Source: Corallococcus macrosporus DSM 14697
Lineage (GTDB): Bacteria > Myxococcota > Myxococcia > Myxococcales > Myxococcaceae
Assembly (NCBI RefSeq): GCF_002305895.1
Contig: NZ_CP022203.1
Span: 3,698,501-3,762,500 of the forward strand
Reading direction: 5' to 3'
Length of the DNA stretch: 64,000 nucleotides
The translations under genes were made by a program, and so were the position numbers. The notes beneath the pieces are model-generated. The model was not told where the DNA came from and searched no databases. It saw only the letters and a list, made by a program, of their open reading frames with translations. The stretch's first letter is position 1. The number at the start of each line of letters is the position of its first letter. Of this stretch, positions 42,457 through 46,460 are shown piece by piece.

Positions 42457-42569
42457 GGGGGCGCATCCGAGCGCTCCCGCCCGGGCGCGTCAAGTCCCGC
42501 CGCGCCGCTCGAAAAGAGTGGGCCCGAGCAGGGTGTCCTCCTGTCCGGGCCCGGGGTGCTGCCATGGAT

Positions 42570-42712
42570 GAGACCCGCACGTTTAAGTTCCTGCCTGCGA
42601 CTGAGACCTCGGGTCCTGCGATTGAACGACCGCCGCGCAAGGTGGAATGGAGCGGCGGGCTGGAATTGCACCAGCATCACGAGGGAGGGGGCGGGAACGG
42701 TCGATCGGGCCT
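42570..42712 (-). ncRNA. YrlA-like Y RNA candidate, copy 2
   Basis: Read on the minus strand, a T-arm-like hairpin (42675-42659, stem GCTGG/CCAGC, loop TGCAATT) is followed by CCGCCGC (42658-42652), a 15-base loop and GCGGCGG (42636-42630). Two bases later comes a D-arm-like hairpin GTTC/GGAC (42627-42613). This is a tRNA elbow in permuted order with a closed acceptor stem. Flanking strands pair as GTTCCCGCC with GGCAGGAAC (42698-42690 / 42595-42587), and CCCG/CGGG further out. The T-loop has G where tRNA has the second T. Ends are approximate. Confidence 0.5.
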
Positions 42713-42739
42713 GCGACAGCGAATGCTGAGTCTGGAGTG

Positions 42740-42917
42740 AGATTTTGAGTCTGGGGTGCTTCGCGCGCTCGTGATGCCGCCTGCCTCTACCGTGATTGGG
42801 CTACCCCGCCGCATGGGATGAGTGGCGGGGGCAGGGCTCGAACCTGCACTGGGGGACGGCCGGAGAACGCTCGGCGTGAAGCTGCTGCTGAGTTTGAGTC
42901 TGGACTCCAAAAGGTCT
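42740..42917 (-). ncRNA. YrlA-like Y RNA candidate, copy 1 (tRNA mimic, permuted)
   Basis: On the minus strand a near-perfect T-arm (42847-42831: GCAGG, loop TTCGAGC, CCTGC) runs into CCCCGCC (42830-42824), a 13-base loop, then GGCGGGG (42810-42804). Next come TA, exactly like tRNA positions 8-9, and a D-arm with GCC/GGC and a GG-containing loop (42801-42783). The 3' half therefore precedes the 5' half and the acceptor stem is closed, as in the tRNA-like module of bacterial YrlA RNAs. The open ends form a long helix: GCTTC/GAAGC, GAGTC/GACTC, TTTT/AAAA and AGA/TCT, with a bulged G. That is where Ro60/Rsr would bind. It starts about 13 bases after the upstream gene's stop. Confidence 0.62.
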
Positions 42918-42929
42918 GCGGCCGTGAGT

Positions 42930-43661
42930 CTAGCCGAACAGATAGCCGAGGAGGGCCTCGCCGGCCTTCATTTCCTCCACCTCGACGGCGTTCGCCTCTT
43001 CGCGGGCGAACTTGACGGCCTGCTGCAGCTTCTCCACGCGCTCCAGCAGGTCATTCACGCGCGTGGCGGGGAGGGCGCCGGAGAACTTCACCGTCTTCCA
43101 GTAACCGACGACGATGTCCTCGTAATAGACCTCCACCTGGGCCGGGTGCTTCTCCGTGGCCTCGGACTTCACGTGGTTGCGGGGGACCTTCTTCGTCTTC
43201 GCCGTCTGCACGGGCTCGGTGGCCCACAGGCCCTGCGCCGGGTCGGGAACCCACGACTCCGACGGGTCCAGCGTGGGCAGCTTCTTCACGAAGGTGTGCA
43301 GGTCCACGAGCTGCTTCTCCAGGAACAGGAGATACGTGGCGGGGACACCCTTGAGCAGCACCTTGCCCTCCACGCGCACGTCCGCCTTCGCGTGGCAGTT
43401 GGTGAGGTCCTTGGTGGCGGTGACGTCGAAGAGCCGGGTGAGAATCTCTTGCGTCTTCTTGAGGACGTCCTGCGTCCGAACCTGCACGCGGGTGGACTCG
43501 GGGGGAAAGCGCTCACCCTCTTCGTCACGGGGCTGATACGTGCGGGAGATGCCGCTGAGCAACTGCGGCTTCTGGAGGTCGTGGTGGGCCTGGGTGAGCT
43601 CCTGCTGGGAGCGGTTCTTCACGCCCTTCTCGACGGCGATGATCTGGTTCAGCTTCGGCAT
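42930..43661 (-). CDS. Conserved protein of unknown function upstream of Y RNA candidates
   Basis: This 243-aa cytoplasmic protein starts MPKLNQIIAVEKGVKNRSQQ. Its conserved-looking blocks include GISRTYQPRDEEGERFPPE, LTRLFDVTATKD, YLLFLEKQLVDLHTFVKKLP, EKHPAQVEVYYED and LLERVEKLQQAVKFAREEAN. I recall close relatives in other bacterial phyla and in phages, but no assigned function. It has no transmembrane or catalytic motif that I recognise. Its stop lies about 13 bases before the first YrlA-like RNA on the same strand, so protein and RNAs are likely one transcript. A link to RNA handling is therefore inferred from context only. Confidence 0.8.
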   Translation of the reverse strand: MPKLNQIIAVEKGVKNRSQQELTQAHHDLQKPQLLSGISRTYQPRDEEGERFPPESTRVQVRTQDVLKKTQEILTRLFDVTATKDLTNCHAKADVRVEGKVLLKGVPATYLLFLEKQLVDLHTFVKKLPTLDPSESWVPDPAQGLWATEPVQTAKTKKVPRNHVKSEATEKHPAQVEVYYEDIVVGYWKTVKFSGALPATRVNDLLERVEKLQQAVKFAREEANAVEVEEMKAGEALLGYLFG

Positions 43662-43775
43662 GACGCGACATCCGTTTCCTGAAATTTGTTTTCCGCCTCG
43701 GACGCAGCATGGCGGCCTGCCCTGACATTTGATGTGATATCCAGGTCTGTAGGGATTTCAAGAGAGGGGACAGCC

Positions 43776-46460
43776 ATGCGCAGCTCGAAGTTGGGTTCCA
43801 CGAGGGTTTCGAAGTCGAAGCCCGCCGCGCCGCGTGAGCAGCCGAAGGCCACGGAGAAGCCGGCCGCCTCCACGACGTCACCCTCGCGGAGCACCTTCGA
43901 GCGCACGGCCACGGCGCCCCTGAACCTCACGGGCTTCGCCGCGCCCCAGCCCGCCGTGGCCCAGCAGGCGCGGGCCTTCCTGGGGCCGCAGGGCCAGGCC
44001 CTCCGCGGGCAATCGCTGGCGGCGGCGCGGCTGGCCCGGGAGCCGCTCACGCCGAGCGCCCAGACGGTGAGCACGGAGCCGCTCCTCGCCGAGGAGGGCG
44101 CGGCGGATGCGCCCCCGGCGGACGCGGCGGAAGCCCAGGCTCGCGCGGAGGAGGCGCGCGCGGCGGTGGGGCGCAACCCCGACACGGTGGCCCAGGACGC
44201 GGACGCCGCGCTGCAGGCCATGCGGGAGGCGAACGACCTGGCGCTGGCGGAGAACCAGCCGCCGCCGTATCCCCACGCGGAGAACGTCCAGGACGCCGCC
44301 GCCGCGGCCCGTCTGGATGCCCAGCAGCAGACGGAGTTGTTCGGGGCTCCGCTGGCGCTGTCCCAGGCGCAGCAGGTCGCCGCGGACGTGGCCACGCTCG
44401 GCGCCGCGCGGGACCCGGCCGCCGCCGCCGTGGAGCTGGAGCGGATGCTGGCCACGGCGTCGCCGGAATACCGCGAGGCCCTGCTGTCGCAGCCCGACGT
44501 GCAGCGGATGCTGGAGGGCTTCGCGGCGTATGAGCCCTCCTATGAACAGGCTGAAGCGTACCGGGCGGGGATGGAGAGCCTGGTCCGCCTGGGCGACGCG
44601 CTGGGGGCGCAGTCGCGCCTGCTGACCGACCCGATCGCACGCGGCTACCCGAGCAACCCCATCAACCTCACGTTCCTGGACACGCTCCGGGCCGTCACCG
44701 GCGCGTCCCAGCCCATGGCGGACTCGTCCGGGCTGGGCTTCGCCATCTCCCTGGACGCTTCACTCACGGCCATCCAGGGGGACATGGTGGCCAGTGACGT
44801 GCGCGGCATCGCGATGCAGGGCCTGGTCGCCGCGGAGGGGGAGTTCGAGCAGGTGGCCGAAGAGGTCGCCGAGCTCCAGCAGCAGCTCGCGCTCTGGCTC
44901 CAGGACATGGGGCCGGCGATGACGGACGCGCAGCGGCAGGCGGCGCTCGACAGCTTCATGCAGCAGCACGCGGAGCTGTTCGCCCGGTTCGAGCAGTTGG
45001 GGGGCCTGCTGGCGGGCGCGGCGACCTCCATCGACGCGAACTTCATGCGCGCGGGCAATGACGCCTACGACAACCACGCCGAGCGCATCCTGCTCTCGTC
45101 GGAAGCGCTGGGGATGACCCGCGCGGGCAGCCAGTTCTTCCAGGACATGGTGGCCAGCGCGAACCCGGACCAGCCGGGGTTGATCGACCACGCGCTGACG
45201 CTCGCGGAGAACAGCCCGGACTTCGCCAGGGGCGCGGCCACGGTGTGGGTCCAGGCGCTCGGCAATCACGCCGCGGAGCTGATGGCGCGCGGGGACACCG
45301 CGTCCGCGCGGGTCCTCCTGGAGGGCCCCATTGGCAAGTACGCGGCGTTGTTCGGGCTAGACGAGTCGAAGTTCCAGCAGGTGCTCGGTGAGCTCGACAA
45401 GCTCCTCACGGCCGCACCCACCACCGGCCCCCAGGCGCAGGCCGCGTTCCAGGAGGGGCTCCAGAAGATTCAGGGCCTCATCGGCGACAGCCGGTTGCTC
45501 AGCGCCTTTGGCGGCGTCGCGCTCGGGTTGGCGACCTTCAGCTTCGCCCAGAGCATGGAGGTGCCCGAGGACCTGGGAGACGCGCTGAAGCTGGCCTCGG
45601 ACGCGGTGGGTATCGGGCCGGACATCGCCGCGGTGGCCGCGAAGATGATGGGCAACAGCTCCGCCGCGTCGTGGATCGACAACGTCGGCGGCAAGGTCCT
45701 CTCGCGCTTCGGCGTGGGCATCGACGTCGTGCGCTCCATCCACGCCTTCGCCAACGGCGACGCGGAGATGGGGGCCGCGCTCGGGCTCCAGGCGGTGGGC
45801 GGCGCGGTGATTGCGTTTGGTGGCCCCGTGGGCTGGGTGGTGGGCGGCGCCATCGTGATTGGCAGCGCCCTGTGGCAGGGCGCCATCGAAGGCGAGAGCG
45901 ACCGCCGCGAGGCGCGCGAGGAGTTCCTCATCAGCGCGGGCGTGCCGCCGGAGACGGCGAAGCGGCTAGCGGCGGCGCCGGACGGACGTCTGCAGCAACT
46001 GGCCGCCATGGGCCTGGACTACGAGCAGATCATGGCGCTGGCGGAGTCCAACTCGCCGCTGCTCGGCGATGACACGACGCCTGAACGCCTCACGGAGCTG
46101 AAGGAGATGGGCTTCACCGCGAGCCAGCTCGTGGAGCTCAGCCGGACGTCTCCCGACCTCTTCACGCAGGAGTCCGGCAACGGCTTCAACATGGAGCGCC
46201 TGCGCGACTTCATGCGCCAGACGGGCATGGATGCCGCGGCGCTGACGGACTTCCTGGGCACGCTGGCGGCGACGGTGCCGGAGAGTGGCGGCGGGGCGAC
46301 CTCGTTCTTCTTCCAGGTGTTCAACGCGCCTGGGAACGCGCCGCGCACCGAGGCGGAGTGGATCGCGCGGTTCCAGGAGGTCGCGGAACACTGGCGGGAC
46401 CGCGACCCGCAGAAAGCCGCGCTGTTCGACGCCGCCGTGGCGCACCTCCAGGCCCACTAG
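43776..46460 (+). CDS. Large Ala-rich protein with glycine-zipper-like hydrophobic segment
   Basis: The 894-aa protein has GAGGGGA before the ATG. The N-terminal 100 residues are basic and disordered (Ser/Pro/Lys-rich), with no Sec signal. Residues about 100-620 are helical and Ala/Glu/Gln-rich. A hydrophobic Gly-rich stretch follows near 700-740 (LQAVGGAVIAFGGPVGWVVGGAIVIG). The tail has two short helical repeats (GVPPETAKRLAAAPDGRLQQLAAMG / MGFTASQLVELSRTSPDLF pieces). This architecture resembles non-Sec secreted effectors or translocators, but I recognise no family. It is followed 150 bases later by a coiled-coil protein gene. Confidence 0.75.
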   Translation: MRSSKLGSTRVSKSKPAAPREQPKATEKPAASTTSPSRSTFERTATAPLNLTGFAAPQPAVAQQARAFLGPQGQALRGQSLAAARLAREPLTPSAQTVSTEPLLAEEGAADAPPADAAEAQARAEEARAAVGRNPDTVAQDADAALQAMREANDLALAENQPPPYPHAENVQDAAAAARLDAQQQTELFGAPLALSQAQQVAADVATLGAARDPAAAAVELERMLATASPEYREALLSQPDVQRMLEGFAAYEPSYEQAEAYRAGMESLVRLGDALGAQSRLLTDPIARGYPSNPINLTFLDTLRAVTGASQPMADSSGLGFAISLDASLTAIQGDMVASDVRGIAMQGLVAAEGEFEQVAEEVAELQQQLALWLQDMGPAMTDAQRQAALDSFMQQHAELFARFEQLGGLLAGAATSIDANFMRAGNDAYDNHAERILLSSEALGMTRAGSQFFQDMVASANPDQPGLIDHALTLAENSPDFARGAATVWVQALGNHAAELMARGDTASARVLLEGPIGKYAALFGLDESKFQQVLGELDKLLTAAPTTGPQAQAAFQEGLQKIQGLIGDSRLLSAFGGVALGLATFSFAQSMEVPEDLGDALKLASDAVGIGPDIAAVAAKMMGNSSAASWIDNVGGKVLSRFGVGIDVVRSIHAFANGDAEMGAALGLQAVGGAVIAFGGPVGWVVGGAIVIGSALWQGAIEGESDRREAREEFLISAGVPPETAKRLAAAPDGRLQQLAAMGLDYEQIMALAESNSPLLGDDTTPERLTELKEMGFTASQLVELSRTSPDLFTQESGNGFNMERLRDFMRQTGMDAAALTDFLGTLAATVPESGGGATSFFFQVFNAPGNAPRTEAEWIARFQEVAEHWRDRDPQKAALFDAAVAHLQAH

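What the first reader, a model, noticed from the sequence alone, without database searches (positions are those of the whole stretch)
42740..42917. YrlA-like Y RNA with a permuted tRNA module in a myxobacterium
The minus strand shows T-arm, acceptor 3' strand, short loop, acceptor 5' strand, TA, D-arm. This is a tRNA elbow with its halves in reverse order and a closed acceptor stem. The T-loop is TTCGAGC, the D-loop contains GG, the 7-bp acceptor is perfect, and a long outer helix (GAGTC/GACTC with TTTT/AAAA and a bulged G) closes the molecule. From established knowledge, YrlA RNAs combine a Ro60/Rsr-binding helix with a tRNA-mimic domain. The match to that plan is hard to explain by chance.
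Basis: partly seen in the sequence, partly recalled or inferred. Interest (0 to 1): 0.92.

Follow-up and report, generated by a model that had tools for sequence, protein, structure and literature searches.

The report
Double tRNA-mimic RNA paired with DUF7873
Next to an uncharacterised protein gene (DUF7873) lies a roughly 400-base RNA that carries two imitation tRNAs with their halves in swapped order; the RNA and the protein gene travel together across soil bacteria and phages, so they are probably a previously undescribed RNA-protein machine that works like the known Y RNA tRNA-mimics but without the Ro60 protein.

Summary
On the minus strand, ~42915-42512, directly 3' of a DUF7873 gene (42930-43661), lie two tandem permuted tRNA modules (T-arm, acceptor 3', short loop, acceptor 5', D-arm). 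Each is closed by an anticodon-stem equivalent and set in further long-range helices. The same RNA is found at most DUF7873 genes examined, in Myxococcus, Streptomyces, Chloroflexota, Armatimonadota and many phages, often inside phage tRNA clusters. Covariation is overwhelming: 99.6% of stem cells paired against 79% in shuffles, and the tertiary 15:48 pair co-varies. RNA and DUF7873 occur in the same 29 of 96 Myxococcaceae genomes; in an actinobacterial genus, in 23 of 23 with the gene and 0 of 12 without. Best reading: a new DUF7873-RNA ribonucleoprotein with tRNA-elbow docking modules. Its biochemical role is inferred, not shown.

The parts
42930..43661 (-). DUF7873 protein gene (PF25283, 243 aa), the constant partner
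   Evidence: Pfam E 1.8e-118; same 29 of 96 Myxococcaceae genomes as the RNA; AlphaFold model pLDDT 92
42512..42915 (-). the whole RNA (approximate ends, inferred from conservation and terminator-like hairpin)
   Evidence: conserved block in 25 genomes, similarity lost downstream of it
42734..42908 (-). unit 1, closed by helix PA: GGAGT 42908-42904 with ACTCC 42738-42734
   Evidence: 25/25 Myxococcus-group genomes; GGACA/TGTCC, AGGGA/TCCCT, AGAGAA/TTCTCT etc. in relatives
42776..42860 (-). anticodon-stem equivalent of module 1: GCCGT 42860-42856 with GCGGC 42780-42776
   Evidence: partner-shuffle test over 51 relatives 3.94 of 5 against 3.18, sd 0.09
42783..42847 (-). module 1: T-arm 42847-42831, acceptor 3' 42830-42824, loop 42823-42811, acceptor 5' 42810-42804, D-arm 42801-42783
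42572..42711 (-). unit 2, closed by PC: GGCCCG 42711-42706 with CGGGTC 42577-42572, and PD: GTTCC 42698-42694 with GGAAC 42591-42587
   Evidence: RNAalifold on 51 relatives, several compensatory pair types in PD; window pairs read
42607..42684 (-). anticodon-stem equivalent of module 2: CCTCG 42684-42680 with CGAGG 42611-42607
   Evidence: CCCCG/CGGGG in other Myxococcus genomes; partner-shuffle 4.36 of 5 against 3.30
42613..42675 (-). module 2: T-arm GCTGG(TGCAATT)CCAGC 42675-42659, acceptor CCGCCGC 42658-42652 / GCGGCGG 42636-42630, D-arm GTTC..GGAC 42627-42613
   Evidence: model R1, built for module 1, matches it weakly at 21.9 bits
42580..42587 (-). conserved internal-loop strand CTTAAACG opposite GATCGACCG
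   Evidence: conserved across phyla
42512..42552 (-). terminator-like hairpin GGGCCCG..CGGGCCC and TTTT
   Evidence: sequence; stem compensated GAGCCCGG/CCGGGCTC in relatives; not picked up by the consensus scan

Best explanation
The locus encodes a two-component ribonucleoprotein: the DUF7873 protein and a structured ~400-nt RNA. The RNA has two tRNA-elbow modules, each a circularly permuted tRNA core (T-arm, acceptor, D-arm) with its acceptor closed by a short loop and its anticodon stem prolonged into the scaffold. Proposed mechanism: DUF7873 binds the conserved scaffold (the GGAGT/ACTCC unit and/or the CTTAAACG internal loop), as Ro60/Rsr binds the basal stem of Y RNA, while the elbows dock host proteins that recognise tRNA bodies (modification enzymes, PNPase-like nucleases, or tRNA-targeting toxins). 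Phages would use it to occupy or redirect such proteins, and bacteria keep it as a mobile cassette. Shown here: the RNA, its two modules, its covariation, its linkage to DUF7873 and its independence of Ro60. Inferred: that the protein binds this RNA, and what the elbows bind.
For: Acceptor, T, D and anticodon-equivalent stems co-vary. The tertiary Levitt pair 15:48 switches A-U to G-C in module 2 (38 A-U, 12 G-C, 1 other of 51), and 8:14 is U-A in 97 of 102, so a real tRNA elbow fold appears to be under selection. Acceptor sequences vary freely, so they show no fixed aminoacylation identity, as expected of a mimic. Co-occurrence: 29/29 and 0/67 in Myxococcaceae; in an actinobacterial genus 19 of 23 DUF7873 genomes by model plus the other 4 by inspection, against 0 of 12 without it. 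The RNA is also found 5' of the gene (L116) or on the opposite strand (L124), so it is not merely its 3' UTR. No other neighbour is conserved. 46 of 80 viral loci carry tRNA genes within 3 kb. Analogy: YrlA's tRNA domain is modified by DusA and TruB and binds PNPase while its basal stem holds Rsr (PMC8394870).
Against: No transcript or binding data. DUF7873 has no recognisable fold or RNA-binding domain. Module 1 can be absent (13 Streptomyces loci plus 4 genomes of a related genus), so two elbows are not always needed. Position 74 is C and 75 mostly C/U in the acceptor loops, which could instead mean RNase P / CCA processing to free ends.
Confidence: 0.6

Rival explanations
1. A true YrlA (Ro60-binding Y RNA) that has lost or not yet been matched to its Ro60 gene.
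For: Same permuted module; the YrlA model gives sub-threshold matches at the modules in several relatives (24-37 bits).
Against: 0 of 25 congeners have TROVE; 19 of 36 other DUF7873 genomes have no TROVE match over cut-off; no Rfam YrlA match at cut-off in 20 diverse loci; linkage is to DUF7873 and not to Ro60.
Confidence: 0.08
2. A processed, tmRNA-like or split-tRNA precursor: RNase P and 3' processing open the acceptor loops, CCA ends form, and the RNA pieces are aminoacylated, as with permuted two-piece tmRNA.
For: Loops begin N-C-Y, with CCA in 19 and 15 of 51, matching the RCCA contact of RNase P; a Vibrio phage has GCCA then a separate hairpin between the acceptor strands.
Against: Most loops are only 6-10 nt; acceptor and discriminator bases vary too much for one synthetase; no G3-U70 signature; no Rfam tmRNA_permuted match at the modules.
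Confidence: 0.15
3. A decoy or regulator specifically against host tRNA-targeting defence (anticodon nucleases and similar), carried with phage tRNA clusters.
For: Phage tRNA-cluster location; the Salmonella YrlA tRNA domain was suggested as a competitive inhibitor of an anticodon nuclease (PMC7790460).
Against: No anticodon loop is mimicked; chromosomal copies lie outside tRNA clusters (0.25 tRNAs per 10 kb); DUF7873 has no PADLOC match.
Confidence: 0.15
4. Degraded tandem tRNA genes that only look permuted.
For: Adjacent ordinary tRNA genes do give model scores up to about 36 bits (G000 482829).
Against: No tRNA in the window; scores of 70-108 bits; no anticodon arms; compensated stems across phyla.
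Confidence: 0.01

Closest known systems
YrlA bacterial Y RNA (Rfam RF02553; PDB 6CU1)
   Same: Circularly permuted tRNA core (T-arm, acceptor, D-arm) with a closed acceptor, attached through the anticodon-stem position; YrlA superposes on tRNA with circular permutation (PMC11472068).
   Different: Here two modules in tandem, ~400 nt instead of 90-150 nt (PMC8394870), partner DUF7873 instead of Ro60/Rsr, other scaffold motifs (GGAGT/ACTCC, CTTAAACG), model score below threshold.
Permuted two-piece tmRNA (Rfam RF04321)
   Same: T-arm and acceptor 3' strand precede acceptor 5' strand and D-arm; loops often hold CCA.
   Different: No tag-coding region recognised, D-arm with a stem, two modules, no Rfam match at the modules.
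Circularly permuted tRNA genes (algae, archaea)
   Same: Gene order 3' half then 5' half.
   Different: No anticodon arm, short closing loops; bulge-helix-bulge sites were not searched for.

Membership tests
YrlA / bacterial Y RNA | permuted tRNA-like module | tested here: met
YrlA / bacterial Y RNA | Rfam RF02553 score at or above 69 bits | tested here: not met
   17.8 bits in the window; at most 37.1 in relatives; none at cut-off in 20 loci
YrlA / bacterial Y RNA | Ro60/Rsr (TROVE) gene in the genome, usually adjacent | tested here: not met
   0 of 25 congeneric genomes; over cut-off in 17 of 36 other DUF7873 genomes
YrlA / bacterial Y RNA | binds Rsr and PNPase | not testable with these tools
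   needs biochemistry
ordinary tRNA gene | cloverleaf with anticodon arm in normal order | tested here: not met
   ARAGORN 0 genes in the window
permuted two-piece tmRNA (RF04321) | covariance-model match | tested here: not met
   no match at the modules
permuted two-piece tmRNA (RF04321) | alanine identity pair G3-U70 | tested here: not met
   G-U at 3:70 in 1 of 51 for each module
DUF7873 (PF25283) protein | Pfam gathering score | tested here: met
   395 bits against 27

The most novel reading that the evidence does not exclude
A new class of RNP, DUF7873 plus a double tRNA-elbow RNA, in which the two elbows act together (for example as a paired-tRNA mimic on the ribosome or on a dimeric tRNA-binding partner, or as two aminoacyl-acceptor ends after processing), spread by phages as a translation-related weapon or shield.
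Probability: 0.2. Interest if true: 0.95.

Novelty: new variant of a known kind. Interest (0 to 1): 0.82.

Why it matters
If right, tRNA-mimic RNAs are not tied to Ro60: a second, widespread system pairs a tRNA-elbow RNA with an unrelated protein of unknown fold, in major soil bacteria and in phages. It gives a large uncharacterised protein family a testable partner, and offers a natural set of variants (module 1 present or deleted) for asking what permuted tRNA mimics do.

Tried and rejected
Energy of folding: uninformative (z -0.17). Rfam at threshold: nothing on the RNA. Fold of DUF7873: Foldseek against PDB and BFVD gave nothing at E<=0.001; the second aligner's best rows are TolC chains at Z about 8 with rmsd 13, read as shape only; one crAss-like phage protein, A0A7M1RW91, at probability 1.0 and TM 0.44/0.58 was not followed. 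PDB sequence search: nothing below E 0.09. Conserved neighbours of DUF7873: none recur in 71 neighbouring ORFs; scattered defence genes only. Literature: no paper in the library with DUF7873, none found on permuted tRNA-like phage noncoding RNAs of this kind. A first pairing scan with too strict spacing found only 15 RNAs and was redone. Weak R1 matches under about 40 bits were discounted because tandem tRNA genes reach nearly that score.

Full report
What is in the sequence. ARAGORN finds no tRNA in the window. The fold of 42740-42917 alone is no more stable than shuffles (z -0.17), so energy does not settle the matter; comparison does.

Conservation. A DNA search finds the region once in each of 25 genomes of the same genus (the window's own included) and in none of 16 genomes of other families of the order. 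Oriented and aligned, the conserved block is about 400 nt long, starts right after the stop codon of a DUF7873 gene and ends in a compensated hairpin with a T run; beyond it the genomes diverge. The alignment shows a second permuted module downstream, with its own T-arm, 7-bp acceptor, D-arm and anticodon-stem equivalent.

GAGTC/GACTC with TTTT/AAAA is complete only in the window genome (1 of 25). GGAGT/ACTCC, whose 3' strand lies a few bases further on, is complete in 25 of 25 and is compensated in distant relatives (GGACA/TGTCC, AGGGA/TCCCT, AGAGAA/TTCTCT).

The partner. The gene just upstream is DUF7873 (PF25283, 395 bits). In 96 Myxococcaceae genomes the RNA and DUF7873 occur in exactly the same 29. 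A covariance model of module 1 and the following segment (R1) gives 70-86 bits in these 29 and at most 53 bits in the other genomes of the family. In an actinobacterial genus 23 of 35 genomes have DUF7873; 19 of them have the RNA beside it at 82-108 bits, and none of the 12 others has a match at E 1e-9. The four remaining DUF7873 genomes carry the RNA with module 1 deleted down to its stem and module 2 kept, as do 13 Streptomyces loci.

Breadth. DUF7873 is in 73 phage records, at least 149 viral contigs and hundreds of bacterial contigs from Myxococcota, Actinomycetota, Chloroflexota, Armatimonadota, Acidobacteriota and Deinococcota. By my count, 136 of 163 DUF7873 loci have an R1 match of 40 bits or more within the fetched DNA; the 13 module-1-less loci add to that, and some of the rest are cut off at contig ends. 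In L116 the RNA lies 5' of the gene and in L124 on the other strand. A permissive pattern scan found a module in 145 of 160 downstream regions against 51 of 800 shuffled regions (28 of 160 on the reverse strand). In phages the cassette often sits among tRNA genes (46 of 80 viral loci with a tRNA within 3 kb; annotated examples).

Structure evidence. On 38 diverse sequences the module-1 stems are 99.6% paired against 79.3% in shuffles, with 93 double-sided changes against 24.6, 0 of 500 shuffles as high. For 51 non-redundant RNAs each sequence's stems fit their own partner far better than another's, including both anticodon-stem equivalents, which were not used to find the modules. These sequences are related, so the figures are not probabilities. 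The 15:48 pair of the tRNA core is A-U in 38 and G-C in 12 of 51 for module 2. This argues for selection on the tertiary elbow and not only on secondary structure. RNAalifold also recovers the scaffold helices PA/PB and PC/PD.

Why not simply YrlA. YrlA has the same permuted core (PMC11472068, PMC8394870). But its defining partner, Ro60/TROVE, is absent from the window genome and its 24 congeners and from about half of 36 other DUF7873 genomes, and the curated YrlA model is not reached in the window or in 20 other loci. So it works like YrlA in the module but is not filed as a member.

Mechanism. From YrlA, where the basal stem holds Rsr and the tRNA domain binds PNPase and is a substrate of DusA and TruB (PMC8394870), the most likely scheme is that DUF7873 holds the scaffold and the elbows dock tRNA-recognising proteins. 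DUF7873 is predicted with confidence (pLDDT 92) but resembles nothing clear in PDB or BFVD. A conserved stretch, TKKVPRNHV...KHPAQV, is a candidate RNA contact (inference). The acceptor loops start N-C-Y, often CCA, which leaves open processing by RNase P and a tmRNA-like role. Acceptor and discriminator bases vary too much for a fixed amino acid identity.

Limits. No expression or binding data exist here; the ends of the RNA are inferred; relatives are not independent; the library of papers is partial (the original YrlA papers are not held), so absence of a report is not proof of novelty.

Noticed in passing
L237, L238, L239, L240, L241 (G044, G045, G010, G083, G002): A second kind of tandem permuted-tRNA RNA in myxobacteria, each unit framed by CGCCCGGC..GAGGCCCTACACGC and ACGGCTTCC.CACTCGGGCG; no tRNA called, no DUF7873 beside it, and no neighbour shared across genera in 10 kb.
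   Followed up: partly
L184, L188, L199, L208, L173, L259-L262: Natural deletion of module 1 down to its stem while module 2 and the scaffold are kept.
   Followed up: yes
G165:C1:4596109 and 4705780; G161:C29 and C2: Genomes with two DUF7873 genes, each with its own RNA.
   Followed up: no
L072 (Vibrio phage D517) 4960-5060: Seemingly a one-module form with GCCA and a separate AT-rich hairpin between the acceptor strands, followed by CTTAAA.
   Followed up: partly
L069 5338-5618 (Pseudanabaena phage PA-SR01): Both modules lie about 600 nt 3' of DUF7873, beyond another small ORF.
   Followed up: no
window 42670-42664: Module 2 T-loop is TGCAATT (G at position 55) in the window and most Myxococcus-group genomes, an unusual departure from TTC.
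   Followed up: no
window 43686-46460 +: 924-aa ORF divergent from DUF7873 without a Pfam or NCBIfam match; may be a spurious high-GC frame.
   Followed up: no
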